Assembly (NCBI RefSeq): GCF_003287285.1
Contig: NZ_QMIG01000043.1
Span: 1 to 40,093, forward strand
Source of the DNA: Phytoactinopolyspora halophila
GTDB taxonomy: Bacteria > Actinomycetota > Actinomycetes > Jiangellales > Jiangellaceae
Length of the DNA: 40,093 nucleotides
Reading direction: 5' to 3'
Position numbers and translations under genes: made by a program. Below, piece after piece: positions 17,321-38,400 of this stretch. Below the pieces are notes generated by a model. That model did not search any database. It was not told the origin of the DNA and saw only the letters and a list, made by a program, of their open reading frames with translations. Position 1 is the first letter of the stretch. Each line of letters opens with the position of its first letter.

Positions 17321-17410
17321 AGAATGATCATGTTTGGTACGTTTCCTCGGGCCGTAACACGTCTGCAGTCGTGTTACGGCCCGAGGAAACGTACCAAACA
17401 TGATCATTCT
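17321..17410. repeat. Large inverted repeat with 41-bp perfect arms, downstream of serA
   Basis: The left arm at 17321-17361 (begins AGAATGATCATGTTTGGTAC) and the right arm at 17370-17410 are exact complements. The 8-base centre TCTGCAGT contains the palindrome CTGCAG. Identical GAACC pentamers touch both ends (17316-17320 and 17411-17415), like a target-site duplication. It starts 72 bp beyond the serA stop, so it could also end the serA transcript. There is no T-tract. It shares TGATCATG near the outer end with three other hairpins in the window. Confidence 0.85.
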
Positions 17411-17482
17411 GAACCCGAGGTGACCGGGTTGGGGCCGAGGATGGTGGTGGAGAGGTGACTGGCTCGCGAGGGCGAAGGCGAG

Positions 17483-19072
17483 TCAGTCGACGAGGTCGAC
17501 GTTACGACCCCACTCGGCGCCAATCGCCTCGATGATGTTGTCGATCACGGGACCGGGCAGCGCCTGGTCGACCGTCATCGCCATGAGGGCGTGCCCACCT
17601 CGCGTATCCCGGCTGACCTGCATGCCCGCGATGTTGATCTCGGCTTCGCCGAGGATGCGCCCGACCACCCCGACGATTCCGGGACGATCGTTGTAGCGGA
17701 AGAAGGCCATGTGCTCGGCGGGGAACGCCTCGATGTCGTAGCCGAGAACCTCGACGATCTTCTCCACGTGCTTCGGTCCGGACAGCGTCCCCGACACGGA
17801 CACCGTGTGCCCGTCGGACATGACACCACGCACGGTGATCACGTTGCGGTAGTCCGACGACTCCTCATGTGCGACGAGGCGCACCTCGACACCGCGGTCG
17901 GCGGCGATCACCGGGGCATTCACGTACGACACGGGATCGTCGACCACATTCGTGAACACTCCCTTGAGCGCGGCCAGCTCCAGCACCTTGACGTCGTGCG
18001 CGGCGATCTCGCCTCGCACCTCGACGTCCAGCTGTGCCGCGACTCCCCCGGCGAGCCCGGTGAAGATCCGGCCGAGCTTCTCCGCCAGCGGGATGCCCGG
18101 GCGAACGTCCTCCGCGATGGCGCCACCCTTGACGTTCACCGCGTCCGGCACGAGCTCTCCGGCCAGCGCCAGCCGCACCGACTTGGCCACCGAGATTCCG
18201 GCGCGTTCCTGCGCCTCTTCAGTCGAGGCACCCAGGTGCGGCGTGACGACCACGGACTCGAAATCGAACAGCGGCGATTCGGTGCACGGCTCCGAGGCGA
18301 ACACGTCGATACCGGCACCGGCCACGCGGCCTTCCTTCAATGCCACGGCCAGCGCGTGCTCGTCGACGATCCCGCCACGCGCGGCGTTGATGATCCGCAC
18401 GTTCGGCTTGACTTTCGCCAGCGCCTGTTCGCCGATCAACCCGGCCGTCTCCGGCGTCTTGGGCAGGTGCACGGTGATGAAATCACTCTTGGCCAGCAGC
18501 TCGTCGAGGCTGACGCTGCGCACTCCCATCTGGGCTGCCCGCGCCGTGGACACGTACGGGTCGTAGGCGATGAGCTCGGCGCCGAATCCGGAGAGGCGCT
18601 GCGCGACTAGCGCGCCGATGCGCCCGAGACCGACGATGCCGACGGTCTTCTCGTACAGCTCGACACCGGAATACTTGCTCCGCTTCCATTCGCCGCCCTT
18701 GAGCGCCTCATTGGCGGGGGCGATGTTTCGCGCGGTGGCGAGCAACAGCCCGACGGCCAGCTCGGCGGCACTCGTGATGTTGGACGTGGGGGCGTTGACG
18801 ACCATGACGCCGGCCTGCGTTGCGGCCTTGACGTCGACATTGTCCAGGCCTACGCCGGCACGGGCGATGACCTTGAGGTTCGAGGCGGCGGAGATCGCTT
18901 CTTCGTCGACCTTGGTCGCGCTGCGGACCAGGATCGCATCGACATCGGCGATGGCCGGCAACAATGCGGAGCGGTCGGCACCGTCCGTATAGCGGATCTC
19001 GAAGTCCGGGCCGAGCGCTTCGACCGTGGCGGGCGAGAGCTCTTCGGCGATAAGTACGACGGGCTTGCTCAC
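17483..19072 (-). CDS. serA: D-3-phosphoglycerate dehydrogenase
   Basis: The 529-residue product is the long (actinobacterial type) form. It has an NAD Rossmann domain with GLGRIGALVAQRL, catalytic residues in the INAARGGIVDEHAL and TPHLGASTEEAQ segments, an intervening ASB domain, and a C-terminal ACT domain (MAFFRYNDRPGIVGVVGRIL) that binds serine. It oxidises 3-phosphoglycerate, the first step of serine synthesis. The GTG at 19072 (VSKPVVLIAEE) was chosen because it fits the family N-terminus and follows GAGGGTG; the frame opens 63 bases earlier without a better site. A TAGAAT -10-like box lies at 19154-19159. The 17.36-kb inverted repeat follows its stop. Confidence 0.95.
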   Translation of the reverse strand: MSKPVVLIAEELSPATVEALGPDFEIRYTDGADRSALLPAIADVDAILVRSATKVDEEAISAASNLKVIARAGVGLDNVDVKAATQAGVMVVNAPTSNITSAAELAVGLLLATARNIAPANEALKGGEWKRSKYSGVELYEKTVGIVGLGRIGALVAQRLSGFGAELIAYDPYVSTARAAQMGVRSVSLDELLAKSDFITVHLPKTPETAGLIGEQALAKVKPNVRIINAARGGIVDEHALAVALKEGRVAGAGIDVFASEPCTESPLFDFESVVVTPHLGASTEEAQERAGISVAKSVRLALAGELVPDAVNVKGGAIAEDVRPGIPLAEKLGRIFTGLAGGVAAQLDVEVRGEIAAHDVKVLELAALKGVFTNVVDDPVSYVNAPVIAADRGVEVRLVAHEESSDYRNVITVRGVMSDGHTVSVSGTLSGPKHVEKIVEVLGYDIEAFPAEHMAFFRYNDRPGIVGVVGRILGEAEINIAGMQVSRDTRGGHALMAMTVDQALPGPVIDNIIEAIGAEWGRNVDLVD

Positions 19073-19303
19073 GTGATGAACACCCTCTTCTAGTGTCGTG
19101 CGTCGTTCACATGATCCATTCAGCGAGCGCGACACTGGGCCCGGTCGCGACCGATTCTAACGGCTCCGTAGCCACCTCGCGACGTCCGAAATCTCACATG
19201 CACTGGTCGGACCAGCCGCCGATGTCGCGAATGTCCAGGTCATCCGCCCGCACGGGCGCAGGTCATCCGCATCCGCCCGCGCCCGGCGACGGGCTGCGCC
19301 CCG

Positions 19304-19969
19304 TCACGGCGTCGGCCAGCTCTCACCGCGGTACGACGCGTCCCAGAACATCCACTCGAACCGCGTCGCCCGCGCGTAGGCCGCGTGCATCTGCTCGACC
19401 TGTCCCGGATCGCCGGCCGCCGCCGCATCCACCAGTTCCTCGGCCCGCCTCGTGTCCGCCTCGAACTCCGGGTCCCCGTACATGGACATCCACGGCGCGT
19501 ACGGGTGGTCCGGGCGTTCGGACAGCACGCCGGCCAGGTGCTGGCCCACCTCGGCATAGATCCGGAAACATGGCAGCAGGCCGGCCAGCGCCACCGGTAC
19601 CGGCGCCAGCGACGCGTCAGACTGCAGCGTGTTCATGTAGGCCAGGCATGTCGGCGTCGGCTCGGCCTCCAGGTCGTCGATGTTCATCCCGCCTTCCTCC
19701 AGCAGGGAGGCGTGTAGCTGGCGTTCGGCCTCGATGGCGCCGGCGGAGAACCGGGCGAGTGACGCCGCACCCTCCGGCTCCGGCCACCGGGCGGCCGTCG
19801 TGGCCAGTGCCCGGGAGAAGCGCACAAGGTAGTGCGCGTCGTCGACGATGTATCGCAGGAAGATCGCGCGATCGAGCGTGCCGTCACCGAGTTCGCGGAC
19901 GAACGGGTGCGCCAGGATCGCCTCGAACCACGGTTTCGCCCGGTCCCAGGCGTCCGCCGAGAAACCCAT
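19304..19969 (-). CDS. tenA: TenA-family aminopyrimidine aminohydrolase / thiaminase II
   Basis: The 221-residue all-helical protein has Asp44 (VDDAHYL), the catalytic Cys134 in LLPCFRIYAEVG, and the C-terminal FEWMFWDASY region with the usual glutamate. TenA hydrolyses aminopyrimidines derived from damaged thiamine so the pyrimidine can be reused. AAGGAG lies 11-12 bases before the ATG. It lies downstream of thiM-thiE-thiD on the same strand, but a strong hairpin separates it from thiD, so its expression may be lower or partly independent. Confidence 0.93.
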   Translation of the reverse strand: MGFSADAWDRAKPWFEAILAHPFVRELGDGTLDRAIFLRYIVDDAHYLVRFSRALATTAARWPEPEGAASLARFSAGAIEAERQLHASLLEEGGMNIDDLEAEPTPTCLAYMNTLQSDASLAPVPVALAGLLPCFRIYAEVGQHLAGVLSERPDHPYAPWMSMYGDPEFEADTRRAEELVDAAAAGDPGQVEQMHAAYARATRFEWMFWDASYRGESWPTP

Positions 19970-20009
19970 ACTGCCTCAACTCCTTCTAGTACGAACGACG
20001 TGTGCCGAC

Positions 20010-20068
20010 ACCCATGATCATGAAGACTAACCGCCCATATAGGTCGGTTAGTCTTCATGATCATGGGT
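20010..20068. terminator. 24-bp-arm hairpin between thiD and tenA (TGATCA family)
   Basis: The left arm at 20010-20033 (starts ACCCATGATCATGAAGACTA) and right arm at 20045-20068 are exact complements around an 11-base loop. The hairpin begins three bases beyond the thiD stop. There is no T-tract. Its TGATCATGAA-ACTAA core closely matches the 38.37-kb hairpin. Confidence 0.75.
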
Positions 20069-20071
20069 CTC

Positions 20072-20926
20072 TCATGGCGAGTGCCACAGGGCGTGGAAAT
20101 GGTGCACGGGGCCGTGACCACCGCCCACGTGCAGCGTGTCCGCCGCCTGCAGGGCCGCTGTCAAGTAGCGCTTGGCCTCCGCGACCGCCTCGTAGACGGA
20201 CCGCTCCCGGGCCAGGCCGACGGCGATCGCCGAGGCGAACGTGCATCCGGTCCCGTGCGTGTTCTTCGTCGCCACCCGCGTGGCGCGCAACTCCTGCGCG
20301 CCGTTCTCGTCGACGAGCACGTCCACAGCCTCCGGACCGCCATCATGTCCACCCTTGACGACGACGGCCGGCACGCCCAGCTCCCGCAGTGCTGCCCCGG
20401 CCTCGGCCATCCTGTCCGGGCGTACCTCATCCCAACCCAGCAGGGTGGCCGCCTCCGGCAGGTTGGGCGTGATGATGCTCGCGCGTGGCACCAGGCGATC
20501 CCGGATGGCGGCCACCGTCTCGTCCGACACGAGGCGATCACCCGAGGCGGCCACCATCACCGGATCGACGACGACGTTGGGCACGCGATAGCGGCCGACC
20601 GCGTCGACGACGGCGTCCACCACGTCGGGCCCTCCGAGCATGCCGGTCTTCGTCGCCCGCACGTCGAGATCGTCGTAGATGGCGCTGAGCTGGTCGGCGA
20701 CGAAGTCGCCGGCGATCGGCAGCACGCCCCGCACGCCCTGGGTGTTCTGCGCGGTCAGCGCGGTCAGCGCGGCGGCGCCGTACGCGCCGAGTGCCGAGAA
20801 GGTCTTCAGGTCGGCCTGGATGCCGGCCCCGCCGGACGGGTCGGACCCGGCAATCGTCAGCACGGTTGGTGTCATGCCCGGCAACCTCGACGAGCTGGTG
20901 CCCGGCGTCGTGGTCGTAGATGTCAT
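20072..20926 (-). CDS. thiD: Hydroxymethylpyrimidine/phosphomethylpyrimidine kinase
   Basis: This 284-residue ribokinase-fold enzyme has LTIAGSDPSGGAGIQADLKTF at the N-terminus, VVDPVMVA, and KNTHGTGCTFASAIA at the phosphate-binding anion hole with the catalytic Asp replaced in place by the family GTGC motif. It phosphorylates the pyrimidine half of thiamine twice. The ATG at 20926 overlaps the thiE stop (ATGA) and has AGGAGGAGAG upstream. It therefore carries about 17 extra residues before the conserved core, for which an ATG at 20875 is an alternative. Confidence 0.94.
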   Translation of the reverse strand: MTSTTTTPGTSSSRLPGMTPTVLTIAGSDPSGGAGIQADLKTFSALGAYGAAALTALTAQNTQGVRGVLPIAGDFVADQLSAIYDDLDVRATKTGMLGGPDVVDAVVDAVGRYRVPNVVVDPVMVAASGDRLVSDETVAAIRDRLVPRASIITPNLPEAATLLGWDEVRPDRMAEAGAALRELGVPAVVVKGGHDGGPEAVDVLVDENGAQELRATRVATKNTHGTGCTFASAIAVGLARERSVYEAVAEAKRYLTAALQAADTLHVGGGHGPVHHFHALWHSP

Positions 20927-21600
20927 GGTTGATCTCTCCTCCTGGCGAGGGCATCGTCGACGGCCGCCCGCAGCGCCCGCGCGGCCTCTTGCGGATCGGG
21001 GGCGGCGAACACGCCGGACACGACGGCGACGCCAGCGGCGCCCGCCGCGATCACCTCGGCTGCCCGCTGTGGAGTGTTGATCCCGCCGATCCCGACGAGC
21101 GGCACGGTGCTGCGCCGGCGTATCGCGGTGACACCCGCGAGGCCGAGCGGGGCGAGCGTGTCGATCTTCGTCGGTGTTTCACACACGGGGCTGGCCGCCA
21201 GATACGAACATGCCGCGAGCGAGGCGGGATCGATCCGCTCCGGGTCGAGCTGCTCCGGTGCCTCAACCGAAAGCCCCACGATCGCCTCGTGGCCCAGCCG
21301 CGCGCGTGCCTGCGCCGGTGTCGCGTCGTGTACACCGAGATGGACACCGCTGCCCGTCGCGGCCGCCACGTCGAGCCGATCGTTGACGACGAGGGGCACG
21401 CGCCACGGTGCCAGCGCCCTGGCCAGGCCGGCAGCCATCGCCGCGAGTTCGCCGTCCGGTGCCTTCTTATCCCGCAGCTGAACCAGGGTCGCACCACCGC
21501 GCACCGCCGCGACGCACATCTCGGCGAGCCGGTCCGCTGGCGTCAACGCCGGATCTGTGACGACGTACAGCCGGACGTCGAGGCCATTCGCGGAGCTCAT
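20923..21600 (-). CDS. thiE: Thiamine-phosphate synthase
   Basis: The 225-residue TIM barrel has LYVVTD at the first strand, TLVQLRDK, VVNDRLDVAAATGSGVHLG, and a glycine-rich phosphate-binding end (IGGINTPQRAAEVIAAGAAGVAVVSGVF). It joins the pyrimidine diphosphate and thiazole phosphate to thiamine phosphate. The ATG at 21600 shares a base with the thiM stop (TGATG). An overlapping GTG at 21603 is possible. The gene is translationally coupled on both sides. Confidence 0.94.
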   Translation of the reverse strand: MSSANGLDVRLYVVTDPALTPADRLAEMCVAAVRGGATLVQLRDKKAPDGELAAMAAGLARALAPWRVPLVVNDRLDVAAATGSGVHLGVHDATPAQARARLGHEAIVGLSVEAPEQLDPERIDPASLAACSYLAASPVCETPTKIDTLAPLGLAGVTAIRRRSTVPLVGIGGINTPQRAAEVIAAGAAGVAVVSGVFAAPDPQEAARALRAAVDDALARRRDQP

Positions 21601-22412
21601 CACGATATCCGGGTCCCGGCGAGCACGGTGGACTGCTCGAGTGCGTACAGCTCGTCGAGCAGACGCCAGCGCAGCGTCCCCGGGCCGACGGCACCGGTGG
21701 CAGCACGTTCACCGGCGAGCCCGAACACGGCCAGCGCGCTGGCCGTGGCCATCAAGGGATCGGCAACGGCGGCCGCATACGCCCCGACGACGGCACTGGC
21801 CGCGCAGCCCATCGCGGTCACCCGTGCCATGAGGGGATGTCCGCCAGCGACGTGCGCCGTCCGGCGCCTGTCCGTCACGACGTCCACGTCGCCGGTCACC
21901 GCCACGACCCCGCCCGTGACCTGGGCCAGCGCAACCGCGGCCTCGAGCGCGTCTCCCGATTCGTCGGTGGCGTCCACGCCCTTGCCCCGGCCGGTCATGC
22001 CGGCCAGGGACAGGATCTCGCTGGCATTGCCGCGAACCACCGTGGGGCGATGCGCCAGCAGCTCGGCGCCCACCTGCGTGCGGTACGACGTCGCGCCCGC
22101 GGCAACCGGATCGAGCACCCACGGGATGCCGCGGTCCGTGGCGGCCCGGACCGCGAGCCGCATCGACTCCACCCAGTTCGGGGAGAGCGTGCCGATGTTC
22201 ACCACGAGCGCATCGGCGAGGAGCGCGAAGTCGACGACCTCCTCGTGCGCGTGCACCATGGCCGGTGACGCGCCGACGGCGAGGAGCGCGTTGGCGGACA
22301 GATCCATGGCGACGTAGTTGGTGACGTTGTGCACCAGCGGGCCGCCACGACGCACCGCATCGGCGCACGCCCAGACGTCGGCCGACCCGGGAAGCGTGGA
22401 ATCGGCCATCAT
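21600..22412 (-). CDS. thiM: Hydroxyethylthiazole kinase
   Basis: The 270-residue ribokinase-like enzyme has PLVHNVTNYVAMDLSANALLAVGASPAMVHA at the substrate site, VLDPVAAGATSYR, RGNASEILSLAG, and VTAMGCAASAVVGAYAAA at the phosphate loop with the catalytic Cys. It salvages the thiazole half of thiamine by phosphorylation. GGAGAGGAG lies just before the ATG at 22412. It is the first gene behind the TPP riboswitch and so the most directly controlled. Confidence 0.95.
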   Translation of the reverse strand: MMADSTLPGSADVWACADAVRRGGPLVHNVTNYVAMDLSANALLAVGASPAMVHAHEEVVDFALLADALVVNIGTLSPNWVESMRLAVRAATDRGIPWVLDPVAAGATSYRTQVGAELLAHRPTVVRGNASEILSLAGMTGRGKGVDATDESGDALEAAVALAQVTGGVVAVTGDVDVVTDRRRTAHVAGGHPLMARVTAMGCAASAVVGAYAAAVADPLMATASALAVFGLAGERAATGAVGPGTLRWRLLDELYALEQSTVLAGTRIS

Positions 22413-22415
22413 GCG

Positions 22416-22437
22416 CTCCTCTCCAGCCGGGAGGGAG
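22416..22437 (-). promoter_or_regulatory. thiM: thiM ribosome site with a facing anti-SD stretch
   Basis: On the transcript CTCCCTCC is followed after a 5-base loop by GGAGAGGAG, the thiM ribosome site. The two can pair, which would let the riboswitch control translation start. The pairing is my reading of the sequence, not a folding calculation. Confidence 0.4.
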
Positions 22438-22477
22438 TGGCGCGGTTGCGACGGGCTGCCGGACCCGTACCGCCGTG

Positions 22478-22553
22478 TCGGCTCCCTGCGCCGGCATGAC
22501 CCGGTTCAGGTTCGGCGGGTGTGATCTCAGCCCTTCGTAGGCACCCCGGCCGA
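22478..22553 (-). ncRNA. TPP (thiamine pyrophosphate) riboswitch aptamer
   Basis: Read leftward, the segment has the invariant TPP aptamer blocks in order: GGGGTGCC, GGGCTGAGA, ACCCG, GAACCTGA, CCGGGTCATGCCGGCG and AGGGA. The ends TCGGC and GCCGA form the P1 stem. It lies 65 bases upstream of thiM. A TAGGTT -10-like box (22568-22573) is well placed to start this RNA. TPP binding should repress the thiM-thiE-thiD run. Confidence 0.95.
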
Positions 22554-22621
22554 TCGGTACGTTTCCCAACCTATCGCGCCGCCCGGCCAAAGAGAAACGT
22601 CGGACTCACGGCCGAACGCGC

Positions 22622-22636
22622 TAGGCTCCTGACATG
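22622..22636 (+). promoter_or_regulatory. Leaderless promoter of the APH-fold gene
   Basis: TAGGCT at 22622-22627 ends exactly seven bases before the ATG at 22634. That is the spacing expected if transcription starts on the A of the start codon. No ribosome site is present. Confidence 0.55.
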
Positions 22637-23326
22637 CCCAGCGGCCCGCTCCCCCTCCTGGCGACCGGACGCACCGCCGACGTCTACGCCGTCGCCGACA
22701 CGCGGGTGCTGCGCCGCTACCGGGACGGATGGGACGTCGCGACCGAAGCGGCGATCATGAACCACGTGCGGGCCCATGGCTTTCCGGCTCCGGACGTGTA
22801 CCGCGCCGAAGGTGCCGAACTGGAGATGGAACGCCTCGACGGCCCGACCATGGTGCATGCGCTGCTGCACGGGCAGGTCGACGTGGATACGGCCGGGCGC
22901 ATCCTCGCCGATCTGCACGCCGGACTCCATGGCGTGCCCCCGTTGCACCCCGCCGGTGCGGGAAGCAGCGTCGTCCATCTCGACCTGCACCCGGACAACG
23001 TGATCCTCACCGCCTCCGGCCCGTACCTCATCGATTGGTGCAACGCCGGCGACGGGCCACCCGACCTCGACGTGGCGCTCTCCGCGCTGATCCTGGCCCA
23101 GGTCGCCATCAGCGAGGAGATGAGCGTGGCCGTCAGTGGCGGCGCGAGCATCGCCGCCACCGCACGCGAACTCGTCGAGATCTTCGTGGCATGTGTGGGC
23201 GGTCAACCGGGCGCGATGCTCGACCATGCGGTGACCTTGCGCACCGCCGACCCGCAGATCACGAAGGCAGAACGGCTCGCCCTGACCGCTGCGGCCGCCC
23301 TCGTCGACGAGCTGGCATCCGCCTAG
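22634..23326 (+). CDS. APH-fold (aminoglycoside phosphotransferase family) kinase
   Basis: The 230-residue small kinase has an N-terminal lobe (TGRTADVYAVADTRVLRRYRDG) and the catalytic loop VVHLDLHPDNVIL (HxDxxxxN), followed by LIDWCNAGDGPPDLDVA, which carries the metal-binding Asp. It is shorter than typical resistance kinases. Many such proteins phosphorylate small sugars or metabolites, and no resistance role can be claimed. It is divergent from the thiamine operon and probably translated without a leader. Confidence 0.85.
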   Translation: MPSGPLPLLATGRTADVYAVADTRVLRRYRDGWDVATEAAIMNHVRAHGFPAPDVYRAEGAELEMERLDGPTMVHALLHGQVDVDTAGRILADLHAGLHGVPPLHPAGAGSSVVHLDLHPDNVILTASGPYLIDWCNAGDGPPDLDVALSALILAQVAISEEMSVAVSGGASIAATARELVEIFVACVGGQPGAMLDHAVTLRTADPQITKAERLALTAAAALVDELASA

Positions 23327-23535
23327 CTGCGCCCAGCTCCGCATCGGCGACGCCGGTCCCGACGCGGACCGACGCGGACCGACTTTGCTGCCCACACGTG
23401 CGAGAAAACCGCCAGATCCACGAATAACTGCACGTCTCGGCATCGAAGTCACCCGCCACGAGGGCGACGGCGGCTTGGCAAACCACGGCGGTCGACGACG
23501 CCGGGCAGGAATAGCCGGCAGGATGGCGGCGCCTT

Positions 23536-24168: not shown

Positions 24169-24174
24169 GCTGCC

Positions 24175-24276
24175 AACATACCGGCTATCGAACGCGTGTT
24201 CCAGTACCGGCGATCGGGTGGTGCCCCGGGGTCCACTGGCGAGCGGTGCGGAAGCAGGCAGTATCGTCGGTCCATG
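24175..24276. promoter_or_regulatory. Divergent leaderless promoters (AlkB and PPOX genes)
   Basis: TATGTT read leftward (24180-24175) ends seven bases before the AlkB ATG. TATCGT (24262-24267) ends seven bases before the PPOX ATG at 24274. Neither gene has a ribosome site. Both transcripts are predicted to begin at the start codon. Confidence 0.55.
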
Positions 24277-24708: not shown

Positions 24709-24911
24709 GAACGGTCGCCGAAAACCTCGCGGCCAGCGAACCCTCGAATCGTCGCACGTATCCACCTGGCGACGATGATCAGCCTGGCAGGCGTGGCCGT
24801 CAGTGCGGAATGGCAGTATGTGCATGGTCGATCGTCGGGTTCGCCGTGTTCCCAGCGCCGGCACCGCCGGTATCGGTGTGCGCGCGGCGGGTACGAGTGG
24901 GGTGATGCGAG

Positions 24912-28325: not shown

Positions 28326-28343
28326 GTCGGTGGAGATGGCGGC

Positions 28344-29303: not shown

Positions 29304-29310
29304 GCTTGAC

Positions 29311-29979: not shown

Positions 29980-29999
29980 TCAACTCCCGTTAAACTCTT

Positions 30000-30028
30000 G
30001 TTCATTTTTCATTCATCTTAACGTTCGG
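30000..30028. promoter_or_regulatory. Candidate PHO box upstream of the DUF47-PiT operon
   Basis: GTTCATTTTTC and ATTCATCTTAA are consecutive 11-base units, followed by CGTTCGG. This matches the 11-base direct-repeat layout of actinomycete PhoP boxes (GTTCAYY-type half sites). The tract is markedly AT-rich and lies immediately upstream of phosphate transport genes. PhoP binding is inference. Confidence 0.5.
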
Positions 30029-30467: not shown

Positions 30468-30523
30468 CGCTGATCATCGGCACTTACCCCCGTCTCAGCC
30501 CAGGTAAGTGCCGATGATCAGCG
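30468..30523. terminator. 21-bp-arm hairpin (TGATCA family)
   Basis: The left arm 30468-30488 (starts CGCTGATCATCGGCACTTAC) and right arm 30503-30523 are exact complements around a 14-base loop. No T-tract follows. No intact gene ends here, so it may be left from a lost neighbour. A single extra copy of TGATCATCGG occurs at about 30587. Confidence 0.7.
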
Positions 30524-30630
30524 GGACCGGGTGAGGCGCTAGGACTACGGCGATGCGGACGCTATGGTGGGCGCGATCAACGAATGATCATCGGACATGG
30601 CAGATCGGCACGGGCACGGAGGGAACGACC

Positions 30631-31350
30631 GTGGAATTCATCAACTGCGCGCAGCGAGGCCTCCGGCGCGCGGCACCCGAGAACACGATCGCGTCCTTCG
30701 AACTCGCAGTTGAGCACGGTGCCAACGAGATCGAACTCGATCTCCGGCTGTCCCGCGACGGGACGATCGTCGTCATGCACGACGCCACCGTCGATCGCAC
30801 CACGAACGGCACCGGCGGCGTTCACGAACTGACCTATGACGAGCTACGCGCCCTCGACGCAGGAGGCGGCGCCCGCATACCGACGTTCGACGAGGTCCTG
30901 GACGCCGTCGACGTCCGGCTCCAGGTCCACCTCAAGGATCCAGCGGTCATCGAGCCGCTTCGCACGCTCCTTACCCGCCGCCGCGACGACCGGGAGCGCA
31001 TCTCGCCGTGCTCCTTCGACCTGGGATGCGTCTCCGTCCTGGCAGACCAGCTACCCGGATGCGTCGTCGGGCTGGTCCGGCGCACCGGCCGGCGCGACGT
31101 CGTGCTCGACGCCGAGGCACACGGCGCGCGGCGCGTGGTGTTCGGCTGGACCGGCATGGACGCCGACCTCGTCGCCTTCGCCCGGGATCGGGGCGTGCAT
31201 TGCAGCGTGTGGCCGGTCAACACCGCCGAGCAGCTGCACGACGCGGTGGCTCTCGGCGTCGACGGATTCACCACCGACCACCCGTCGCTGCTGTTCGACC
31301 ACGGCTACGCGGTGCACGACGGGGCCCTCGTCCTGCCCAGCGGTGTCTGA
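30631..31350 (+). CDS. Glycerophosphodiester phosphodiesterase-family protein with His-to-Gln change
   Basis: The 239-residue TIM barrel of the GDPD family carries LRRAAPENTIASFELAVEHG, EIELDLRLSRDG (Glu and Asp metal ligands) and VVMHDATVDRTTNGTG. The family's first catalytic histidine (in the motif AHRG) is read here as Gln: the DNA GCG CAG CGA GGC gives AQRG, Gln8. The second histidine (MHD) is present. The protein may be a poor phosphodiesterase or have another activity. The GTG at 30631 follows GGAGGG by six bases; the frame is open 78 bases upstream without one. It is convergent with the sugar-binding protein gene. Confidence 0.85.
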   Translation: MEFINCAQRGLRRAAPENTIASFELAVEHGANEIELDLRLSRDGTIVVMHDATVDRTTNGTGGVHELTYDELRALDAGGGARIPTFDEVLDAVDVRLQVHLKDPAVIEPLRTLLTRRRDDRERISPCSFDLGCVSVLADQLPGCVVGLVRRTGRRDVVLDAEAHGARRVVFGWTGMDADLVAFARDRGVHCSVWPVNTAEQLHDAVALGVDGFTTDHPSLLFDHGYAVHDGALVLPSGV

Positions 31351-31365
31351 CCTCGGCGCCGCGCT

Positions 31366-32712
31366 CTACTCGAACAGGGCGTTCACCTGTTCGTTCGCCT
31401 CGGTGAGCGCATCGGTGTCGGAGGAGAATGACACGATCGAGTCCATCGTCGGGCCCATGATGGCGCTGACCTCCGCCCACTCGTCGGTAACGGGCGCGAG
31501 GTAGGTGGTCTCTTCGTCGACGTGCACCGTGAATGGCGCGATGTCAATGTCCTTCTCGGCGAAGGCGTCCACGGCCCGTTCCGTGGATTCTTCGATCGCG
31601 GGGAACACGACCGCGTGCTCGGCCACGATGTCCTGGCATTCCGGAGACGCCAGGAACTTCACCCACTCCCATGCGGCCTCCGGTTCGTCCGTCCCGGCCC
31701 AGATCGAGTCCGCGAGGCCGTTGAACATGCTCGCCCGCTCGCCTTCGGGGCCGACGGGGGTGGGAGCCAGCCCGGTGTCCACACCTTCGAGGTCCACGTA
31801 CGCACTGACGTTCCAGCTTCCCTCGGTCACCATGGCGTAATTGCCGGCACCGTACTGCTCCATCATGCTCACACCGGCGTCCGCCATCTCGAAGCTGGGC
31901 ATGTACCCCTTCTCGATCAGGCCGCGCCACCAATCGATCGTTTCGACGAACGCGGGATCGTCGTAGTTGAACTCCGAGCCCCAGGGGTTCTGGTCGGTGT
32001 GCGTCCAGCCGTTGCTGAACGCGTACATGCTCCATTCGGTCTGCCCGAATCCCTCACCGGCGCTGTTCAGACCGATCCCGTACACGTCCACGTTGTCCGG
32101 GTCGAAGTCCGGTTCGTCGCCACGGTTGCCGTTCTCGTCGACCGTCAGCTTGGCGATGACCTCCTCGTAGCTGCCGCCGTCGTCCGGGTTCCAGTCCAGC
32201 TCGGCCATGTCCTCCGGCGTCAGGCCGGCATCGGCGAGCATCTCCTCGTTGTAGAAGACGGCCACCGTGTCCCAGTCCTTGGGCAGCCCGTAGCGCTGGC
32301 CGTCCTGGCCGACCCAGAGCTCGGCGAGCCCGTCGTGATAGATCGACGTATCGATCCCGTCGCGTTCCACGTACTCGCCGATCGCGAGCAGCTGATCCTC
32401 GGCGGCGAACTGCGGGTATCGGGACAGGTGGTTGGTGAAGACATCGGGAGCGGTACCGCCGACCAAGCTGGTGGTCACCTGGTCCCAGTAGTCCTCCCAG
32501 CCGTACTGCTCGATCGTGACGCGCACGTCGGTGCCGCTCTCGTGGAACGCGTCGGCGCATGCCTCGTAGGCGGGAAGCTGGTTCGCGTCCCACAGCCAGT
32601 AGGTGATCTCGCCGTCGGCGGAGGCATCACCGCCCCCGCCACCACCGCATGCGGCGACGACGAGCGGCACCGCCACGGCGCCGGCGGCGATACGTACACG
32701 TGTGCGTCTCAT
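31366..32712 (-). CDS. ABC transporter sugar-binding lipoprotein
   Basis: The 448-residue type I extracellular solute-binding protein has a lipoprotein signal (LVVAACGGGG, with Cys21 or so lipidated) and a glycine-rich tether. Family landmarks follow: GGTAPDVFTNHLSRYPQFAAEDQL, YGLPKDWDTVAVFYNEEMLADAGL and AWEWVKFLASPECQDIVAEHAVVFPA. It captures sugar outside the membrane for the two permeases just upstream. The ATG at 32712 follows GAAAGGAC. It is the last gene of a four-gene leftward operon headed by the alpha-galactosidase, so an alpha-galactoside ligand is likely. No ATPase gene is present. Confidence 0.93.
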   Translation of the reverse strand: MRRTRVRIAAGAVAVPLVVAACGGGGGGDASADGEITYWLWDANQLPAYEACADAFHESGTDVRVTIEQYGWEDYWDQVTTSLVGGTAPDVFTNHLSRYPQFAAEDQLLAIGEYVERDGIDTSIYHDGLAELWVGQDGQRYGLPKDWDTVAVFYNEEMLADAGLTPEDMAELDWNPDDGGSYEEVIAKLTVDENGNRGDEPDFDPDNVDVYGIGLNSAGEGFGQTEWSMYAFSNGWTHTDQNPWGSEFNYDDPAFVETIDWWRGLIEKGYMPSFEMADAGVSMMEQYGAGNYAMVTEGSWNVSAYVDLEGVDTGLAPTPVGPEGERASMFNGLADSIWAGTDEPEAAWEWVKFLASPECQDIVAEHAVVFPAIEESTERAVDAFAEKDIDIAPFTVHVDEETTYLAPVTDEWAEVSAIMGPTMDSIVSFSSDTDALTEANEQVNALFE

Positions 32713-32765
32713 CTGGTCGTGTCCTTTCGTCGAGTGGGTCGGGGGCCGGGTGGCGATGCAGCGCG

Positions 32766-33710
32766 CTACTTGATCCCGGAGAAGCCGATCGAGTTGACGA
32801 CCCTGCGGCCGAGCACGGCGAACAGGATCATGACCGGCAGCGCCGCGATCAGCGTGGCGGCCATCAGGCCAGCCCAGTCCGGGCTGCCCTGCGGGGTCTG
32901 CGACCGGAAGACCCCGAGCGCGACCGTGAGTACGCGGACGTTCTCCTCCTGGCCCACCAGCAGCGGCCACATGTAGTCGTTCCACGCGTTGATGTAGGTG
33001 AGGATCGACAAGGTGGTGATCGGAGCCGCAGCCATCGGGATGATCAGGCGGAAGAAGATCCGGGCATGTCCCGCGCCGTCGATCATCGCCGCCTCCTCGA
33101 TCTCCCGGCTGAGGCCGACGAAGAATTGACGCAGGAAGAACACCGCGAACGGCGTCATGAACAGGGTCGGCAAGACGATTCCGGCGAAGGTGTTCAGCAA
33201 CCCCAGATCGCGGATCAGGATGAAGTTCGGCAGCGTGGTGAAGATCGGCGGCACCATCAACGCGGTGAGGAAGAGGAAGAACACCTTGTCGCGCCCCGGC
33301 CAGCGCAGCCTGGCGAAGGCGTAGGCCGCCATAGCGCAGAAGAAGACCTGGCCGATGGTGACCACCGTGGCCACCACGATCGAGTTTCGCAGGTAGAGCC
33401 AGAAATTGACGCTAGCCCCGGATCCGCCCTCGGCCAGCGCCTCCTCCGTCGTCGCCATGCCGAGAACGCGCTCGAACGCACCCAGGGTGAGGTCGGCCGG
33501 CAGCGGCGACCCCGCCTCCGCGGCGAGCGCCCGGTTGTTGGACAGCGACGTGCGCAGCATCCAGTAGAACGGGAAGATCGTGACGATGAGCAGGACGATC
33601 AATGCCGCCCACGCCACCACCCGTCCCCAGTTGACGGGCCGGCGCGGCGCCTTCTGACCACTCCGCACGCGTGGTCCGTGCGTGCCCGGCGAGCGGGTCG
33701 CGACCGTCAT
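32766..33710 (-). CDS. ABC sugar transporter permease, MalG type
   Basis: The 314-residue inner-membrane protein has about six helices and the EAA loop EEAAMIDGAGHARIFFRLIIP that contacts the ATPase. ALMVPPIFTTLPNFILIRDLGLLNT and the C-terminal GFSGIK are typical of MalG/LacG-type permeases. The ATG at 33710 was chosen because AGGAGG lies nine bases upstream; a GTG nine bases earlier would sit directly on that site. It pairs with the MalF-type permease upstream. Confidence 0.93.
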   Translation of the reverse strand: MTVATRSPGTHGPRVRSGQKAPRRPVNWGRVVAWAALIVLLIVTIFPFYWMLRTSLSNNRALAAEAGSPLPADLTLGAFERVLGMATTEEALAEGGSGASVNFWLYLRNSIVVATVVTIGQVFFCAMAAYAFARLRWPGRDKVFFLFLTALMVPPIFTTLPNFILIRDLGLLNTFAGIVLPTLFMTPFAVFFLRQFFVGLSREIEEAAMIDGAGHARIFFRLIIPMAAAPITTLSILTYINAWNDYMWPLLVGQEENVRVLTVALGVFRSQTPQGSPDWAGLMAATLIAALPVMILFAVLGRRVVNSIGFSGIK

Positions 33711-33726
33711 GGCCGTCACCCTCCTT

Positions 33727-34659
33727 TCACGAGAGGTCGGACTCGCCGGCCCGGAGCATCCTGAGCTGGGCTATGGCGACACCGCCGAGGATGAGGAACA
33801 GGACGACGGAAATAGCGGCGGCGTAGCCGAAGTCGAACCGTTCGAATGCCAGCTCGAAGATGTAGAAGTAGATCACCCGCGTGGCATCGACCGGGCCACC
33901 GGAGGTGGTGACCGCCACCGTGTCGAAGATCTGGAAGGAACCGATGACGCTGAGGATCAAGACCAGCGCCATGATGGGCCGCAGCAGCGGCAAGGTCACC
34001 GACCAGAACATGCGCCATTCCGAGGCACCGTCGATGGCCGAGGCCTCGTAGACGTACTTCGGGATCATCTGCAAGCCGGCGAAGATCAGCAGTGCGGTGT
34101 AGCCCATGTGCCGCCAGACGTTGACCAGCGCGATCGTGGGGATCGCCCACGTCTCGCTGCCGAAGAAGGAGATGCGCCCGAGCCCGATCCAGTCGAGGAT
34201 CTGGTTGACCACACCCAGCTGGTAGTCGAGCATCCAGAACCACACGAGCGCGACCACCACGTTCGCCACCAGGTAGGGAAGCAGGACGAGGCCGCGGATC
34301 GTCACCGACGTCGTCAGGCGGTGCATCAGCACGGCCAGGGCGAGGGCGACGACGGTCTGCACGCCGATGTTGATGACGACGTAGAGCACCGTCACCCGCA
34401 GCGAGTTCCAGAAGAGCGGATCCCCGATCAGGCGCTCGAAGTTCGCGAGGCCGACGAACTCCGCGTCACCGAGCAGGGAGAACTCGGTCAGGCTGAGGTA
34501 GAAGCCGCGGAGGGTGGGCCACAGGTAGAAGACGGTGAAGCCGAGGGCCGCGGGAAAGAGGAAGACGAGGGCGACGCGCAGGTCACCGAAGCGTCGTCGT
34601 CGCCCGGAAACGGCACCGCTCGCCTTCGCTGCCCGCTTGGGAACGACCTGTGTGGCCAT
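33727..34659 (-). CDS. ABC sugar transporter permease, MalF/UgpA type
   Basis: The 310-residue inner-membrane protein has about six helices, FYLWPTLRGFYLSLTEFSLLG at the N-terminus and the EAA loop YEASAIDGASEWRMFWSVTLP. FDTVAVTTSGGPVDATRVIYFYIFE is typical of MalF/UgpA permeases. It lies between the alpha-galactosidase gene (6 bp upstream) and the second permease (16 bp downstream) in one operon. With no ATPase nearby, it probably uses a shared MsiK-like ATPase encoded elsewhere, as is common in actinobacteria. Confidence 0.93.
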   Translation of the reverse strand: MATQVVPKRAAKASGAVSGRRRRFGDLRVALVFLFPAALGFTVFYLWPTLRGFYLSLTEFSLLGDAEFVGLANFERLIGDPLFWNSLRVTVLYVVINIGVQTVVALALAVLMHRLTTSVTIRGLVLLPYLVANVVVALVWFWMLDYQLGVVNQILDWIGLGRISFFGSETWAIPTIALVNVWRHMGYTALLIFAGLQMIPKYVYEASAIDGASEWRMFWSVTLPLLRPIMALVLILSVIGSFQIFDTVAVTTSGGPVDATRVIYFYIFELAFERFDFGYAAAISVVLFLILGGVAIAQLRMLRAGESDLS

Positions 34660-34665
34660 GAGCCG

Positions 34666-36969
34666 TCATCTCCCCACACCAGCTCGCGTGGAGGTCTCCT
34701 CGCCTCGCGTGCCAGCGGTCGCGACGCGCGTCGCCGCGACGAGAACCAGCCGTTCGGGATAGAGGGTCGGTGCCTGCACGCCGGCGGCGGAAATCACCTG
34801 CCCGGGCAGCTCCACGCCGCTCTCCCACCACCGCAGCGGCGAGCGCGTCGGCCCCGCAGGCTCGTCTCCGGGTGCGAGCGGGCCCAGGCGATACCGCGCT
34901 TCCGGGTCCAGGCCGGGCAGGCGGACGACGCCGGTCGGCGACTGCACGCTGGTGGCCAGCTGCACGACGGCGTAGATGGCGCGCGATCCGTCGCGGGCGA
35001 CCACGCCGTGCACGAGGACGGATGGGTCGGCGTGGTCGGCGCGTACGACGTCGCCGGTGTGCAGCAGGTCCCGGACGTCCTTGTACAGCGCGACCCAGCG
35101 CGCCAGCTCGGCCCGCTCCGCAGCCATCGCTGCCGTCAGGTCCCACTCGATGCCGAAGTGGCCGAACAGCGCGGTCCCGGCCCGGAATGTCAGGGAATGC
35201 GATCGGCCCGTGGTGTGCGCGACTCCGGCGCCGACATGCGCACCGAGCATCTCGGGAGGGACGAGCACCTCGCTCCAGCGCTGGATCTGCTGGCGTTCCA
35301 GGGCATCGATGCAGTCCGAAGTCCAGACACGGTCGGTGCGGGCAAGGATGCCGAGATCGACGCGGCCACCCCCGGACGAGCACGATTCGATCTCCACGCC
35401 CGGGTGCCGCGAGCGCAGCTCGTCGATGAGCCGGTACGTGGCCCGGGTCTGCGCGTGGACCCCGGCGCCCGCGTCGGGACCCTGCCCGGCGTCGACGAGG
35501 TCCCGGTTATGGTCCCACTTGAGGTAGCCGATGCGGTACTCGGTGAGCAGCGCGTCGAGCCGTTCCAGGATGTAGGCGTAAGCGTCCGGATGGGCCAGGT
35601 TCAGCACCTGCTGGTGCCGCGCTTCCGGCGGCATCCGGTGACCGGTGGCGAGGATCCATTCCGGATGGGCGCGCGCCAGATCGGAATCCGGGTTGATCAT
35701 CTCCGGCTCCACCCAGAGACCGAACTGCATCTCGCGCTTGGTGACGTGGTCGACGAGCGGGTGCAGGCCGCGTGGCCACACCGTCTCGTCCACGTACCAG
35801 TCACCGAGGCCCGCGCGATCGTTGCGGCGGCCCCGGAACCAGCCGTCGTCGAGGACGAACCGCTCGACCCCGGCGTCGGCCGCGAGGTCGGCGAGCTCGG
35901 TGAGCCGGTCCAGGTCGTGATCGAAGTACACCGCCTCCCACGTGTTCAACGTGACCGGGCGAGGTGACCGCGGATGTCCGGGTCGCGCGCGCAGGTGGTC
36001 GTGGAAGCGGCGGGACACCTCGTCCAGCCCGTCGCCGTAGGCGCCGTAGATCCACGGCGTGGTGTACTTCTCGCCGGGCGCGAGGCGGACCTCGCCGGGC
36101 AACAGCAACTCTCCACCAGCGAGGATGGACTCGCCCTGCGGTGTCCGCTCGGCAAGAACCCGGTGGTTCCCGCTCCAGCCCACGTGCATGGCCCAGACCT
36201 CGCCGCGGCGGAAGCCGAACCCCTGCTCGCCGGCGGCCAGCACGAGGGAAGCGTCGAGACCGGTCCGGCCGCGGCGGTTCTCCCGAACGTGCGTGCCAAC
36301 AGTGAACTCGGAGCGCTGCGGGCTTCGCTCGCGTAGGTGCCGGCCGGTCAGATCGAGCAGCTCGGTCGCGGCCAGCGGCACTGGCAGGGCGAGCATCACG
36401 CCGTCGAGCGTGTACACGGACTCACCCGCGTTGCGGACCGTCGCCCGCTGCATCACCACCCCGGCGGCGTCGAGACCGAGGTCGAGCGTGAGGGCGATAG
36501 CCGCGTCCGGATCACTCGCGGTCACCGTCACGATCTGCCCGGGCCTGATCGATTCGTCCGGGCCAGCGGGGCCAGCCAAGCCAGCGGGAGCAGCCGGGCC
36601 AGCGGGGCCAGTCGGGTCAGCGGGGCCAGCCGGGCTAGCCGGGTCGGCACGGTCCCCCTGCTCGACCGAGTCGACGGTGAACAGGGCCGAGAAGGCGGCC
36701 CCGTCCCGGTGACCGGTGAGCCCGGGCGTTCCCATCCATCCGGTCGCCGGCTCGGGCAGCACGCTCACGGCGGTCTCGTCGTCCACGGTGTTGGACACCT
36801 GCTGCGGCTGCTGGCTCACCGCCAGCGCCGCGAGCTCGTCGTCACCGAGGTCGCCCAGATCGCGTCCCCAGTAGAGGATGCGGGGCATCCGGGAGTGTGC
36901 ACAGTCGATGACGAGACTCGATCCCGCAGCCCGCAGGTGGACGGGACCGGTCGATGGCTGGTGTGGCAT
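34666..36969 (-). CDS. GH36 alpha-galactosidase
   Basis: This 767-residue glycoside hydrolase family 36 enzyme has an N-terminal beta-supersandwich, a (beta/alpha)8 barrel and a C-terminal beta domain. The barrel shows NTWEAVYFDHD, VLDDGWFRGRRND, GLWVEPEMINPDSDL, the nucleophile Asp486 in YLKWDHNRD, the ESCSSGGGRVDLG loop and the acid/base Asp552 in VWTSDCID. No signal peptide is seen, so it acts inside the cell on imported alpha-galactosides. Residues about 109-138 are an odd Pro-Ala-Gly-rich run. It heads the operon with the importer and is divergent from a ROK regulator. Confidence 0.95.
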   Translation of the reverse strand: MPHQPSTGPVHLRAAGSSLVIDCAHSRMPRILYWGRDLGDLGDDELAALAVSQQPQQVSNTVDDETAVSVLPEPATGWMGTPGLTGHRDGAAFSALFTVDSVEQGDRADPASPAGPADPTGPAGPAAPAGLAGPAGPDESIRPGQIVTVTASDPDAAIALTLDLGLDAAGVVMQRATVRNAGESVYTLDGVMLALPVPLAATELLDLTGRHLRERSPQRSEFTVGTHVRENRRGRTGLDASLVLAAGEQGFGFRRGEVWAMHVGWSGNHRVLAERTPQGESILAGGELLLPGEVRLAPGEKYTTPWIYGAYGDGLDEVSRRFHDHLRARPGHPRSPRPVTLNTWEAVYFDHDLDRLTELADLAADAGVERFVLDDGWFRGRRNDRAGLGDWYVDETVWPRGLHPLVDHVTKREMQFGLWVEPEMINPDSDLARAHPEWILATGHRMPPEARHQQVLNLAHPDAYAYILERLDALLTEYRIGYLKWDHNRDLVDAGQGPDAGAGVHAQTRATYRLIDELRSRHPGVEIESCSSGGGRVDLGILARTDRVWTSDCIDALERQQIQRWSEVLVPPEMLGAHVGAGVAHTTGRSHSLTFRAGTALFGHFGIEWDLTAAMAAERAELARWVALYKDVRDLLHTGDVVRADHADPSVLVHGVVARDGSRAIYAVVQLATSVQSPTGVVRLPGLDPEARYRLGPLAPGDEPAGPTRSPLRWWESGVELPGQVISAAGVQAPTLYPERLVLVAATRVATAGTRGEETSTRAGVGR
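36556..36645 (-). repeat. Low-complexity 9-bp-type repeat inside the alpha-galactosidase gene
   Basis: Repeats of GGGCCAGC-like 9-mers encode an irregular PAGP run (residues about 109-138: PASPAGPADPTGPAGPAAP and on). It keeps the frame and lies in the N-terminal sandwich domain, probably as a surface loop. Confidence 0.8.
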
Positions 36970-37159
36970 GTGTCCTCCGGGCGTCGATACGTTGGAGAGT
37001 TAGTTTCGTAGTAGAATTTATGTCTTGTCAATATCCGGAGCGGAGAGCCAAAGAGCCCGCAGAGTGCCGCCTAATGAGAGCTGAGTCACAGCCAAATATG
37101 TTGAGACAAAATAAAAAGGTCCGGCTACACTGGCGGATCGAGACCTGGAGGAATGTCCG
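36970..37159. promoter_or_regulatory. Divergent promoter region of alpha-galactosidase and ROK genes
   Basis: This AT-rich 190 bp separates the two divergent genes. Rightward, TTGAGA (37101-37106) and TACACT (37125-37130) are 18 bp apart, a good sigma-70-type pair for the ROK gene, whose ribosome site GGAGGA lies at 37147-37152. Leftward, TTGACA (37031-37026) is a likely -35 for the alpha-galactosidase operon, but the -10 is less clear. The ROK operator probably lies here; I could not pick one palindrome. Confidence 0.5.
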
Positions 37160-38350
37160 ATGCGCACCGCATCGCCGTCGTCGCCGTTGTGGAACGGGCT
37201 GACCGACCCGGCGCGATCCGTCGCGCTCGAAGTCCTCTACCACGGCCCGCTCTCGCGCGCCGAGCTCGCACGACGGCTCTCGCTGTCCGCGGGCAGCCTG
37301 ACCCGGCTGTCGAAGCCATTGCTGGACAGCGGCCTGCTCATTGAGGTCGGCACGCAGCTCGACAATCGCATCGGCCGGCCCGCCGTGCTGCTGGACGTCG
37401 AGCCGACATCGCGACACTTCGTCGGCGTCAAACTCACCGGCGATGAAGCACACGCCGTCCTGACCACGCTGCGGGCGGAGGTCGTGGCCAGCCAGCGCGC
37501 TCCCCTGCACAGTCACGACCCGGATCACGTCGTGTCCACCGTGGGCGAGCTCGTCTCCGGGCTCGTCGGTCATGCTCCGGATACTGTCGCGCTGGGTGTC
37601 AGCGTGGGCGGGCGCGCCGACGACAACACCACCGTCACCTCGGCACCGTTCCTTGATTGGACGGACGTGCCGCTCGGCAAGATGGCCAGTGACGCCACCG
37701 GCCTACCGTGCGTCGTCGAGAACGATGTCGTCGCGGTGACCGAGGCCGAGCACTGGTTCGGAGCCGGACGCGACTGCGAGCGGTTCGCGTTGATCACGAT
37801 CGGAGCCGGCGTCGGCTACGGTCTCGTGGTGCACGACCAGCTCGTCGGCAGCCCGGACATCGGTACCGGCCTCGCCGGGCACATCTCGCTCGATCCGGGT
37901 GGTCCTCCGTGCGGGCTCGGCCACAAGGGGTGCGCGGCAGCCATGCTGACGATACCGGCGATCCACGCCGCGGTGTCCGTGGGCCTGCAGCGTGAAGTGA
38001 GCTACGACGAGTGTCTCGACCTCGCACTGCGCGGCGATCCCGTCGCCAGCCGCGTCGTCACCGACGCCGGCCGGGCGCTGGGCAGGCTGATCGCGCTGGT
38101 CGGTAACCTGACGATGCCACACAAGATCATCCTGACGGGCGACGGCATCCGGCTAGCGTCCGTGGCCGAGGACGTCATGCTCCAGCGGATCGCCGACGAG
38201 CGCGACGCCGCGGCCTCGACTCTCGACCTCGACGTTCAGACCTTTGACTTCTTCGAGTGGGCACGCGGTGCCGCCGTCATCGCCATCCAGAAGTACGTCC
38301 TCGGCCACCTCTCCCCGGCCACGTCCTCCCCGCCCTCCCCGTCCCGCTGA
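37160..38350 (+). CDS. ROK-family transcriptional regulator
   Basis: The 396-residue product has an N-terminal winged helix-turn-helix (SRAELARRLSLSAGSLTRLSKPLLDSGL) and a ROK sugar-kinase-like domain (LGVSVGGRADD, ENDV at 187-190, TIGAGVGYG, GHISLDPGG). The usual zinc motif CxCGxxGCxE reads CGLGHKGCAA here: Cys251 and Cys258 are present, the middle Cys is Leu253, and the final Glu is Ala260. His241 is kept, and His255 might help bind zinc. Its position opposite the alpha-galactosidase operon suggests a sugar-responsive repressor of it. Its stop codon lies inside a hairpin arm. Confidence 0.9.
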   Translation: MRTASPSSPLWNGLTDPARSVALEVLYHGPLSRAELARRLSLSAGSLTRLSKPLLDSGLLIEVGTQLDNRIGRPAVLLDVEPTSRHFVGVKLTGDEAHAVLTTLRAEVVASQRAPLHSHDPDHVVSTVGELVSGLVGHAPDTVALGVSVGGRADDNTTVTSAPFLDWTDVPLGKMASDATGLPCVVENDVVAVTEAEHWFGAGRDCERFALITIGAGVGYGLVVHDQLVGSPDIGTGLAGHISLDPGGPPCGLGHKGCAAAMLTIPAIHAAVSVGLQREVSYDECLDLALRGDPVASRVVTDAGRALGRLIALVGNLTMPHKIILTGDGIRLASVAEDVMLQRIADERDAAASTLDLDVQTFDFFEWARGAAVIAIQKYVLGHLSPATSSPPSPSR

Positions 38351-38400
38351 TCATGAACACTAAGCGACCTATGTACTCGCCTAGTGTTCATGATCAGCGG
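38344..38400. terminator. Bidirectional hairpin between the convergent ROK and isomerase genes (TGATCA family)
   Basis: The left arm 38344-38362 (CCGCTGATCATGAACACTA) and right arm 38382-38400 are exact complements. After one mismatch the stem continues for three more pairs. The ROK stop TGA is the TGA of TGATCA in the left arm. The isomerase stop lies 14 bp beyond the right arm. No T-tracts. Confidence 0.8.

What the first reader, a model, noticed from the sequence alone, without database searches (positions are those of the whole stretch)
17321..38400. Family of four intergenic hairpins built on an outer TGATCA core
Hairpins at 17321-17410, 20010-20068, 30468-30523 and 38344-38400 have perfect arms of 41, 24, 21 and 19 bp. 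All start with or near TGATCAT; two also share AA-ACTAA. The rest of each stem differs although both arms agree, which implies paired change under selection for pairing. Three sit at gene ends (serA, thiD, ROK/isomerase), one overlapping the stop codon, and none has a T-tract. They may be a lineage-specific bidirectional terminator, a protein-binding chromosome landmark or a dispersed repeat family.
Basis: partly seen in the sequence, partly recalled or inferred. Interest (0 to 1): 0.65.

Follow-up and report, generated by a model that had tools for sequence, protein, structure and literature searches.

The report
Repeated hairpins capping gene ends
These four hairpins belong to a large set of short mirror-image DNA repeats, scattered through this actinobacterium and its relatives, that sit mostly at the ends of genes, often supply the gene's own stop codon, and probably work as two-way transcription stops that keep being replaced by new copies.

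Summary
The four hairpins are real and belong to a dispersed superfamily. In the window's genome the loose pattern TGATCAT-N-ATGATCA occurs at 163 places, reversed control 0. It matches in 22 of 22 Jiangellaceae genomes (1-211 matches; a few are not hairpins) and at 5-13 places in six genomes of other families. A same-composition control heptamer matched once each in 11 of 393 genomes. Around a constant TGATCAT core the inner stem is lineage-specific; window hairpin 1 is a separate 82-nt type. Elements sit mostly at gene 3' ends; in 43 of 139 tandem or convergent cases the gene's stop codon is the TGA of TGATCA. Orthologous junctions often carry a different hairpin or none. Best reading: a fast-turning-over family of bidirectional, T-tract-less terminator hairpins that spreads as repeats. 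Its stems are kept perfect partly by replication template switching: flank pairing is site-specific, up to 26 nt, and G-U mismatches do not exceed A-C. No RAYT-type transposase was found in 22 genomes. Termination, the spreading route and template switching are inferred.

The parts
17320..17411 (.). Hairpin 1, 82-nt subfamily (core 17325-17406), 71 nt past the serA stop (serA on - strand ends at 17483)
   Evidence: longest perfect run 42 bp; at least 12 other places at 90-98% identity in the genome; ortholog at the same place in G021 and G017
20010..20068 (.). Hairpin 2, 49-nt subfamily TGATCATGAAGACTAA, directly past thiD (- strand, ends 20072)
   Evidence: no TGATCA hairpin called at the orthologous junction in 5 genomes of genus g6, though G020 and G021 hold a longer nested inverted repeat there by eye
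30468..30523 (.). Hairpin 3, 50-nt subfamily TGATCATCGGCACTTA, upstream of the GDPD gene (30631-31350 +)
   Evidence: upstream of GDPD, 4 of 5 g6 genomes carry other hairpins and the fifth (G021) a degenerate one by eye
38344..38400 (.). Hairpin 4, 49-nt subfamily TGATCATGAACACTAA, between convergent ROK (+) and TIM-barrel isomerase-like (-) genes
38348..38350 (+). TGA stop codon of the ROK gene, which is the TGA of the hairpin's TGATCA
   Evidence: gene end 38350; the C-terminal tail is about ten residues longer than in orthologs
17483..19072 (-). serA (D-3-phosphoglycerate dehydrogenase); start by codon-usage caller
   Evidence: Pfam PF02826, PF00389, PF19304 on the longer ORF
20072..20863 (-). 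thiD (phosphomethylpyrimidine kinase); start by codon-usage caller
   Evidence: Pfam PF08543 on the longer ORF
37187..38350 (+). ROK-family protein gene ending inside hairpin 4; start by codon-usage caller
   Evidence: Pfam PF00480 on the longer ORF
38415..39419 (-). xylose isomerase-like TIM barrel gene, convergent to the ROK gene
   Evidence: Pfam PF01261 on the longer ORF

Best explanation
The hairpins are members of a dispersed superfamily of palindromic elements (in this family mostly 49-50 nt and 82 nt between the outer TGATCA ends) whose arms share a TGATCAT core and otherwise differ by subfamily and species. They sit mostly at gene 3' ends and most likely act as bidirectional, T-tract-less ('I-shaped') terminators or 3'-end hairpins. 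TGATCA reads TGA on both strands, so the element can also supply the stop codon. New copies arise at gene ends, and at some junctions stand where relatives have another hairpin, by an unidentified copying route. Arms and neighbouring flanks are made complementary at least partly by template switching during DNA replication. Shown: repeat family, core, gene-end position, stop-codon use, differences at orthologous sites, site-specific flank pairing in two genomes. Inferred: termination, how copies spread, replacement as such, template switching as a cause of the perfect stems.
For: Repeat family and core: 163 places, reversed control 0; 22 of 22 family genomes; control heptamer TGTACAT in 11 of 393 genomes, one match each; TGATCA in 35 of 80 strong inverted repeats in 1.62 Mb. 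Position: in six contig stretches plus the window, 18 of 60 intergenic elements convergent against 10.6 expected, 5 of 60 divergent against 14.8, 37 tandem against 34.6. In the pooled set of 168: 81 tandem with median 15 nt past the upstream stop, 58 convergent, 17 divergent, 5 inside, 7 edge. TGATCA repeats lie closer to stops than other hairpins (median 5 against 38 nt, n 31 and 37, p 2.5e-8). Stop codon: 43 of 139 at -3 against 10 at the in-arm stops; 13 of 55 against 5 in the contig set. Turnover: before GDPD 4 of 5 g6 genomes have a hairpin of four sequence types, while 8 of the 10 g5 genomes read there have an overlapping stop/start and no gap. In tandem gaps, orthologs of element-bearing sites have a hairpin in 33 of 73 comparisons against 67 of 518 for sites without one (not independent). 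Template switching: mean flank pairing 5.08 against 1.60 shuffled (own genome, 25 elements) and 7.22 against 3.80 (P. limicola, 51 elements), 0 of 500 shuffles reaching either. T-tract-less terminators within 50 bp of stops are described for mycobacteria (PMC12288462, passages).
Against: No transcript data. No G-U excess along the transcript (73 against 75 A-C), which RNA-level selection would predict over long times. In convergent gaps the ortholog of an element-bearing site had a hairpin in 0 of 9 comparisons, against 15 of 45 for sites without a hairpin. Of 97 adjacent orthologous comparisons of element-bearing sites, 67 had no hairpin by the finder; that is an upper bound, since it missed some degenerate copies seen. 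P. halotolerans shows no flank pairing beyond its consensus (3.18 against 3.13, 44 elements). 17 of 168 elements lie between divergent genes, where no gene ends. [quoted passage not shown] paper not read).
Confidence: 0.55

Rival explanations
1. Non-functional mobile palindromic repeats (REP- or MITE-like). They insert widely and survive mainly at gene ends because there they do least harm; any terminator effect is a by-product.
For: Copies within a species are more alike than between species; many orthologous sites lack the element (67 of 97 without a called hairpin, an upper bound); gene ends are shifted into elements; no G-U bias; 20 of 24 P. halotolerans copies share one fixed mismatch in one or the other orientation, as descendants of one master would.
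Against: No Y1/RAYT transposase in 22 genomes, though other transposases were not searched; no target-site duplication of usual length; solitary arms few; other hairpins stand at some of the same junctions in relatives; fewer divergent sites than expected although these are also non-coding.
Confidence: 0.3
2. A DNA landmark: a sequence-specific protein binds the paired TGATCA half-sites, for chromosome organisation or as an uptake-type signal.
For: TGATCA is itself palindromic and is the constant part across subfamilies and families; in Neisseria inverted pairs of uptake sequences double as terminators (PMC2397512, passages).
Against: The longer arms were found as close inverted pairs, with few solitary cases, most with a diverged partner; pattern counts swing from 1 to 211 within one family; tight tie to stop codons.
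Confidence: 0.1
3. Ordinary independently evolved terminators that share TGATCA by chance or composition.
For: Hairpins without TGATCA are also common, 45 of 80, mostly tandem or convergent.
Against: Shared 14-nt arms in up to 87 copies per genome, 0 in reversed controls; TGATCA enriched 32-fold in arms; a same-composition heptamer gives at most one match per genome.
Confidence: 0.02

Closest known systems
I-shaped (T-tract-less) intrinsic terminators of GC-rich bacteria
   Same: Stable hairpin shortly after the stop codon, no U-tract; also considered for U-lacking 3' ends of Streptomyces clavuligerus (PMC8269248 and PMC12288462, passages)
   Different: As described in those passages they are a structural class; these share a TGATCAT core, form dispersed subfamilies and often contain the stop codon
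Neisserial DNA uptake sequences (DUS) in inverted pairs acting as terminators
   Same: A short constant sequence as an inverted repeat serving as terminator (PMC2397512, passages)
   Different: DUS also occur singly and serve DNA uptake; here arms occur nearly always as pairs, inner stems are also repeated, and no uptake role is known
REP / GTAG- and CGTC-tagged palindromic repeats with RAYT transposases
   Same: High-copy short palindromes, species-specific families (PMC3733652, passages)
   Different: No Y1 transposase in the family; long near-perfect stems; gene-end and stop-codon bias. The terminal tags were not tested for
Template-switch mutation in hairpins
   Same: Creates and repairs perfect stems with multi-base compensatory changes and stem extension (PMC8794818, abstract and passages)
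   Different: Studied there in RNA genes; here offered to explain dispersed elements whose flanks are site-specifically complementary

Membership tests
Dispersed palindromic repeat family | many copies with shared sequence in one genome | tested here: met
   163 places with the loose pattern, reversed control 0; 87 with the strict 14-nt arms
REP/RAYT elements | cognate Y1 (RAYT) transposase in the genome | tested here: not met
   PF01797: 0 of 22 family genomes; 5 of 14 control genomes positive
REP/RAYT elements | GTAG or CGTC tag at one end | not tested
   tag known from PMC3733652 passages; not scored on these elements
MITE of a DDE transposon | target-site duplication | tested here: inconclusive
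   mean longest flanking direct repeat 1.78 against 1.41 shuffled (own), 1.17 against 0.81 (P. limicola), 1.23 against 1.24 (P. halotolerans): none of usual length, slight excess in two
MITE of a DDE transposon | autonomous element sharing the same ends | not tested
   only solitary arms were looked for in the contig stretches; no transposase family beyond PF01797 was searched
I-shaped intrinsic terminator | stable hairpin shortly after a stop codon, no U-tract | tested here: met
   68 of 81 tandem elements within -40 to +60 of the upstream stop; predicted RNA energies -38.5 to -81.1 and no T-tract for the four window hairpins; T-tracts not scored for the rest
I-shaped intrinsic terminator | causes transcription termination | not testable with these tools
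   no transcript data
DUS-type uptake/terminator repeat | signal also occurs as single copies and promotes DNA uptake | tested here: inconclusive
   few solitary arms, most with a diverged partner; uptake not testable
Rfam RNA family | match at or above gathering score at the hairpins | tested here: not met
   only a TPP riboswitch elsewhere in the window

The most novel reading that the evidence does not exclude
A class-spanning superfamily of self-spreading 'gene-ender' cassettes. One short palindrome with a constant TGATCAT core carries, on both strands, a stop codon and a terminator hairpin. It is copied into gene ends by an unknown non-RAYT route, displaces the resident terminator and can split operon junctions.
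Probability: 0.3. Interest if true: 0.8.

Novelty: new variant of a known kind. Interest (0 to 1): 0.6.

Why it matters
If right, transcription-end signals in these bacteria are supplied and renewed by a repeat family and not only evolved in place. That would help explain fast terminator turnover and give a natural system for watching perfect hairpins arise by template switching. It also warns that covariation in dispersed palindromes need not mean selection on RNA structure. The constant core across several families points to an unidentified recognising factor.

Tried and rejected
Chance: rejected by shuffles and controls. REP/RAYT membership: rejected for lack of a Y1 transposase. Ends of a larger transposon: solitary arms were few in 1.6 Mb; most have a visible diverged partner, while two places with the short 11-nt arm TGATCATCGGC look truly solitary; no wider transposase search was made. 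Target-site duplications: none of usual length. Known RNA family: none at the hairpins. Viral carriage: 0 exact matches of the strict pattern in viral contigs. RNA selection as the sole cause of covariation: not supported. Clean empty sites: attempted; intergenic DNA is too diverged for base-exact boundaries. The overlapping stop/start of g5 genomes before GDPD is the nearest thing, and the direction of that change is not proven. A description in print was not found; one search listed only 20 of 1,428 papers holding the letters TGATCATG, so this is weak.

Limits of the counts: genes were called by a home-made codon-usage caller; stops are exact, starts and some small genes are not. Orthologous comparisons are directional and not independent. 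The inverted-repeat finder misses degenerate copies, so 'none' is an upper bound: it said none for G018/G019 (202469/139568) and for G021 past serA, where searches show the element. The contig set was not wholly blind: the stretch of the window's own genome was picked as a large contig already listed with elements, and the window is the finding itself; the other five contigs were picked for holding serA. The pooled set adds loci fetched by the element pattern. For convergent elements the smaller of the two stop distances was counted. In one search, 16 loci from other families gave 15 contexts (L118 none), using the codon model of the window's genome. In one search minus-strand loci were shown unturned; one search repeated this turned. 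There the printed G000 stretch is not the junction (motif misplaced; one search shows it), G014 and G012 have other sequence upstream, and G007 and G016 had no close GDPD match. G018 has Ns near serA.
Full report
Observation. The four hairpins are present with longest perfect runs of 42, 24, 21 and 19 bp and no T-tract on either side. The hexamer TGATCA occurs 29 times in the window against 6.5 expected. In 400 kb of another contig of the same genome 22 strong inverted repeats were found, 8 with TGATCA, and none in an order-3 Markov shuffle. In 1.62 Mb from six genomes plus the window there were 80, 35 with TGATCA, and none in an order-4 shuffle.

Family. A loose pattern (TGATCAT, 20-50 nt, ATGATCA) gives 163 places in the window's genome and 0 for the reversed control. 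The strict 14-nt arms give 87 there, and 0, 5, 52, 86 and 38 in the five genomes of genus g6 (G017-G021), and 0 in the other 16 family genomes. In 393 genomes of the class the loose pattern with a 28-40-nt gap matches in 22 of 22 family members, 1-211 times; the single match of G004 and some in G002 and G003 do not look like hairpins. Of 371 genomes of other families 125 have a match, nearly all with 1-4, many of them coding sequence by look. The six with more are G026 (13), G168 and G256 (12 each), G109 (10), G050 (6) and G101 (5); with a wider gap G109 has 30. These share TGATCATG but mostly have their own inner stems. The same-composition heptamer TGTACAT matched in 11 of 393 genomes, once each. 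So the TGATCAT core is constant and the inner stem is lineage-specific.

Subfamilies. Hairpins 2 and 4 belong to the 49-50-nt type TGATCATGAA(C/G)AC. Hairpin 3 is a 50-nt type TGATCATCGGCACTT, also common in G001. Its ortholog past serA is present in G021 and G017. Of 42 pair columns 41, 34 and 37 pair in G000, G021 and G017, and in 14 columns two of the three species differ on both sides while both pair.

Position. In six contig stretches plus the window 62 elements were found: 37 tandem, 18 convergent, 5 divergent, 2 inside a called gene. Against available intergenic room convergent is in excess (18 of 60, 10.6 expected, p 0.017) and divergent depleted (5 of 60, 14.8 expected, p 0.002); tandem is as expected. 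Pooled, 168 elements: 81 tandem (median 15 nt past the upstream stop; 68 within -40 to +60), 58 convergent, 17 divergent, 5 inside, 7 at locus edges. TGATCA repeats lie closer to stop codons than other hairpins (median 5 against 38 nt). Of 16 loci from other families: 5 convergent, 5 tandem, 3 divergent, 1 inside, 1 edge, 1 without a call.

Stop codon. In 43 of 139 tandem or convergent elements the nearest gene's stop is the TGA of TGATCA, against 10 ending at in-frame stops further inside the arm. In the contig set it is 13 of 55 against 5. In the genes compared, tails of element-ended genes are of ortholog length in some and differ by a few to about a dozen residues in others. The window's ROK protein has about ten extra residues, encoded by the hairpin's C-rich flank.

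Turnover. Of 97 comparisons of element-bearing junctions with adjacent orthologous genes, the finder called no hairpin in 67 (an upper bound), a TGATCA hairpin in 14 and another in 16; a further 30 were not adjacent. In tandem gaps the ortholog had a hairpin in 33 of 73 comparisons when the source had an element and 67 of 518 when it had none. In convergent gaps the contrast runs the other way (0 of 9 against 15 of 45). These comparisons are not independent. Some elements are shared at orthologous sites (serA; G018/G019). The clearest case of difference is the junction before the GDPD gene, upstream of which window hairpin 3 lies. G018, G019 and G020 each have a TGATCA hairpin of a different subfamily, G017 an unrelated perfect hairpin, and G021 a degenerate relative of G017's that the finder did not call. 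Eight of the ten g5 genomes read there have the upstream stop overlapping the GDPD start (TGATG in seven, ATGA in one), with no gap.

How the stems stay perfect. Pairing continues outside TGATCA, different in each copy. Mean contiguous flank extension is 5.08 against 1.60 for flanks shuffled between copies of a subfamily in the window's genome (25 of 32 elements usable), and 7.22 against 3.80 in P. limicola (51 of 53) with a maximum of 26 nt. In P. halotolerans there is no excess (3.18 against 3.13, 44 of 47). Oriented along the upstream transcript, mismatches that would be G-U in RNA (73) do not exceed A-C (75); in the other contexts 80 against 94. Replication template switching creates and repairs such stems (PMC8794818, abstract and passages). 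I take it as at least part of the cause, so covariation here is not by itself proof of RNA selection.

What it is not. No Y1 (RAYT) transposase in 22 family genomes, with 5 of 14 control genomes positive. No Rfam family at the hairpins. No target-site duplication of usual length. No exact match of the strict pattern in viral contigs.

Mechanism. I commit to T-tract-less bidirectional terminators, like the I-shaped ones described for mycobacteria and considered for Streptomyces (passages), supplied by a spreading repeat family, at 0.55. The main rival is a tolerated mobile repeat (0.3).

Noticed in passing
22466-22558 (-): TPP riboswitch above gathering score, next to the thiamine genes
   Followed up: no
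16571-16615: A strong GC-rich hairpin without TGATCA
   Followed up: no
30585-30599: A lone TGATCATCGG core between hairpin 3 and the GDPD gene, perhaps a decayed element
   Followed up: no
L162 and L161 (G021, G020), tenA-thiD junction: A longer nested inverted repeat with TGATCGT ends, possibly a relative of the TGATCAT superfamily
   Followed up: partly
G000 C12 28289 and 150194 (in L088 and L094): Two related 68-nt hairpins at convergent gene ends, another repeat type
   Followed up: no
49-50-nt elements, several genomes: The apex is often CTATG/CATAG or CTATAG by eye, also in G026 of another family
   Followed up: no
element flanks: The left flank is C-rich and the right flank G-rich in many copies, on whichever strand it is read
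   Followed up: partly
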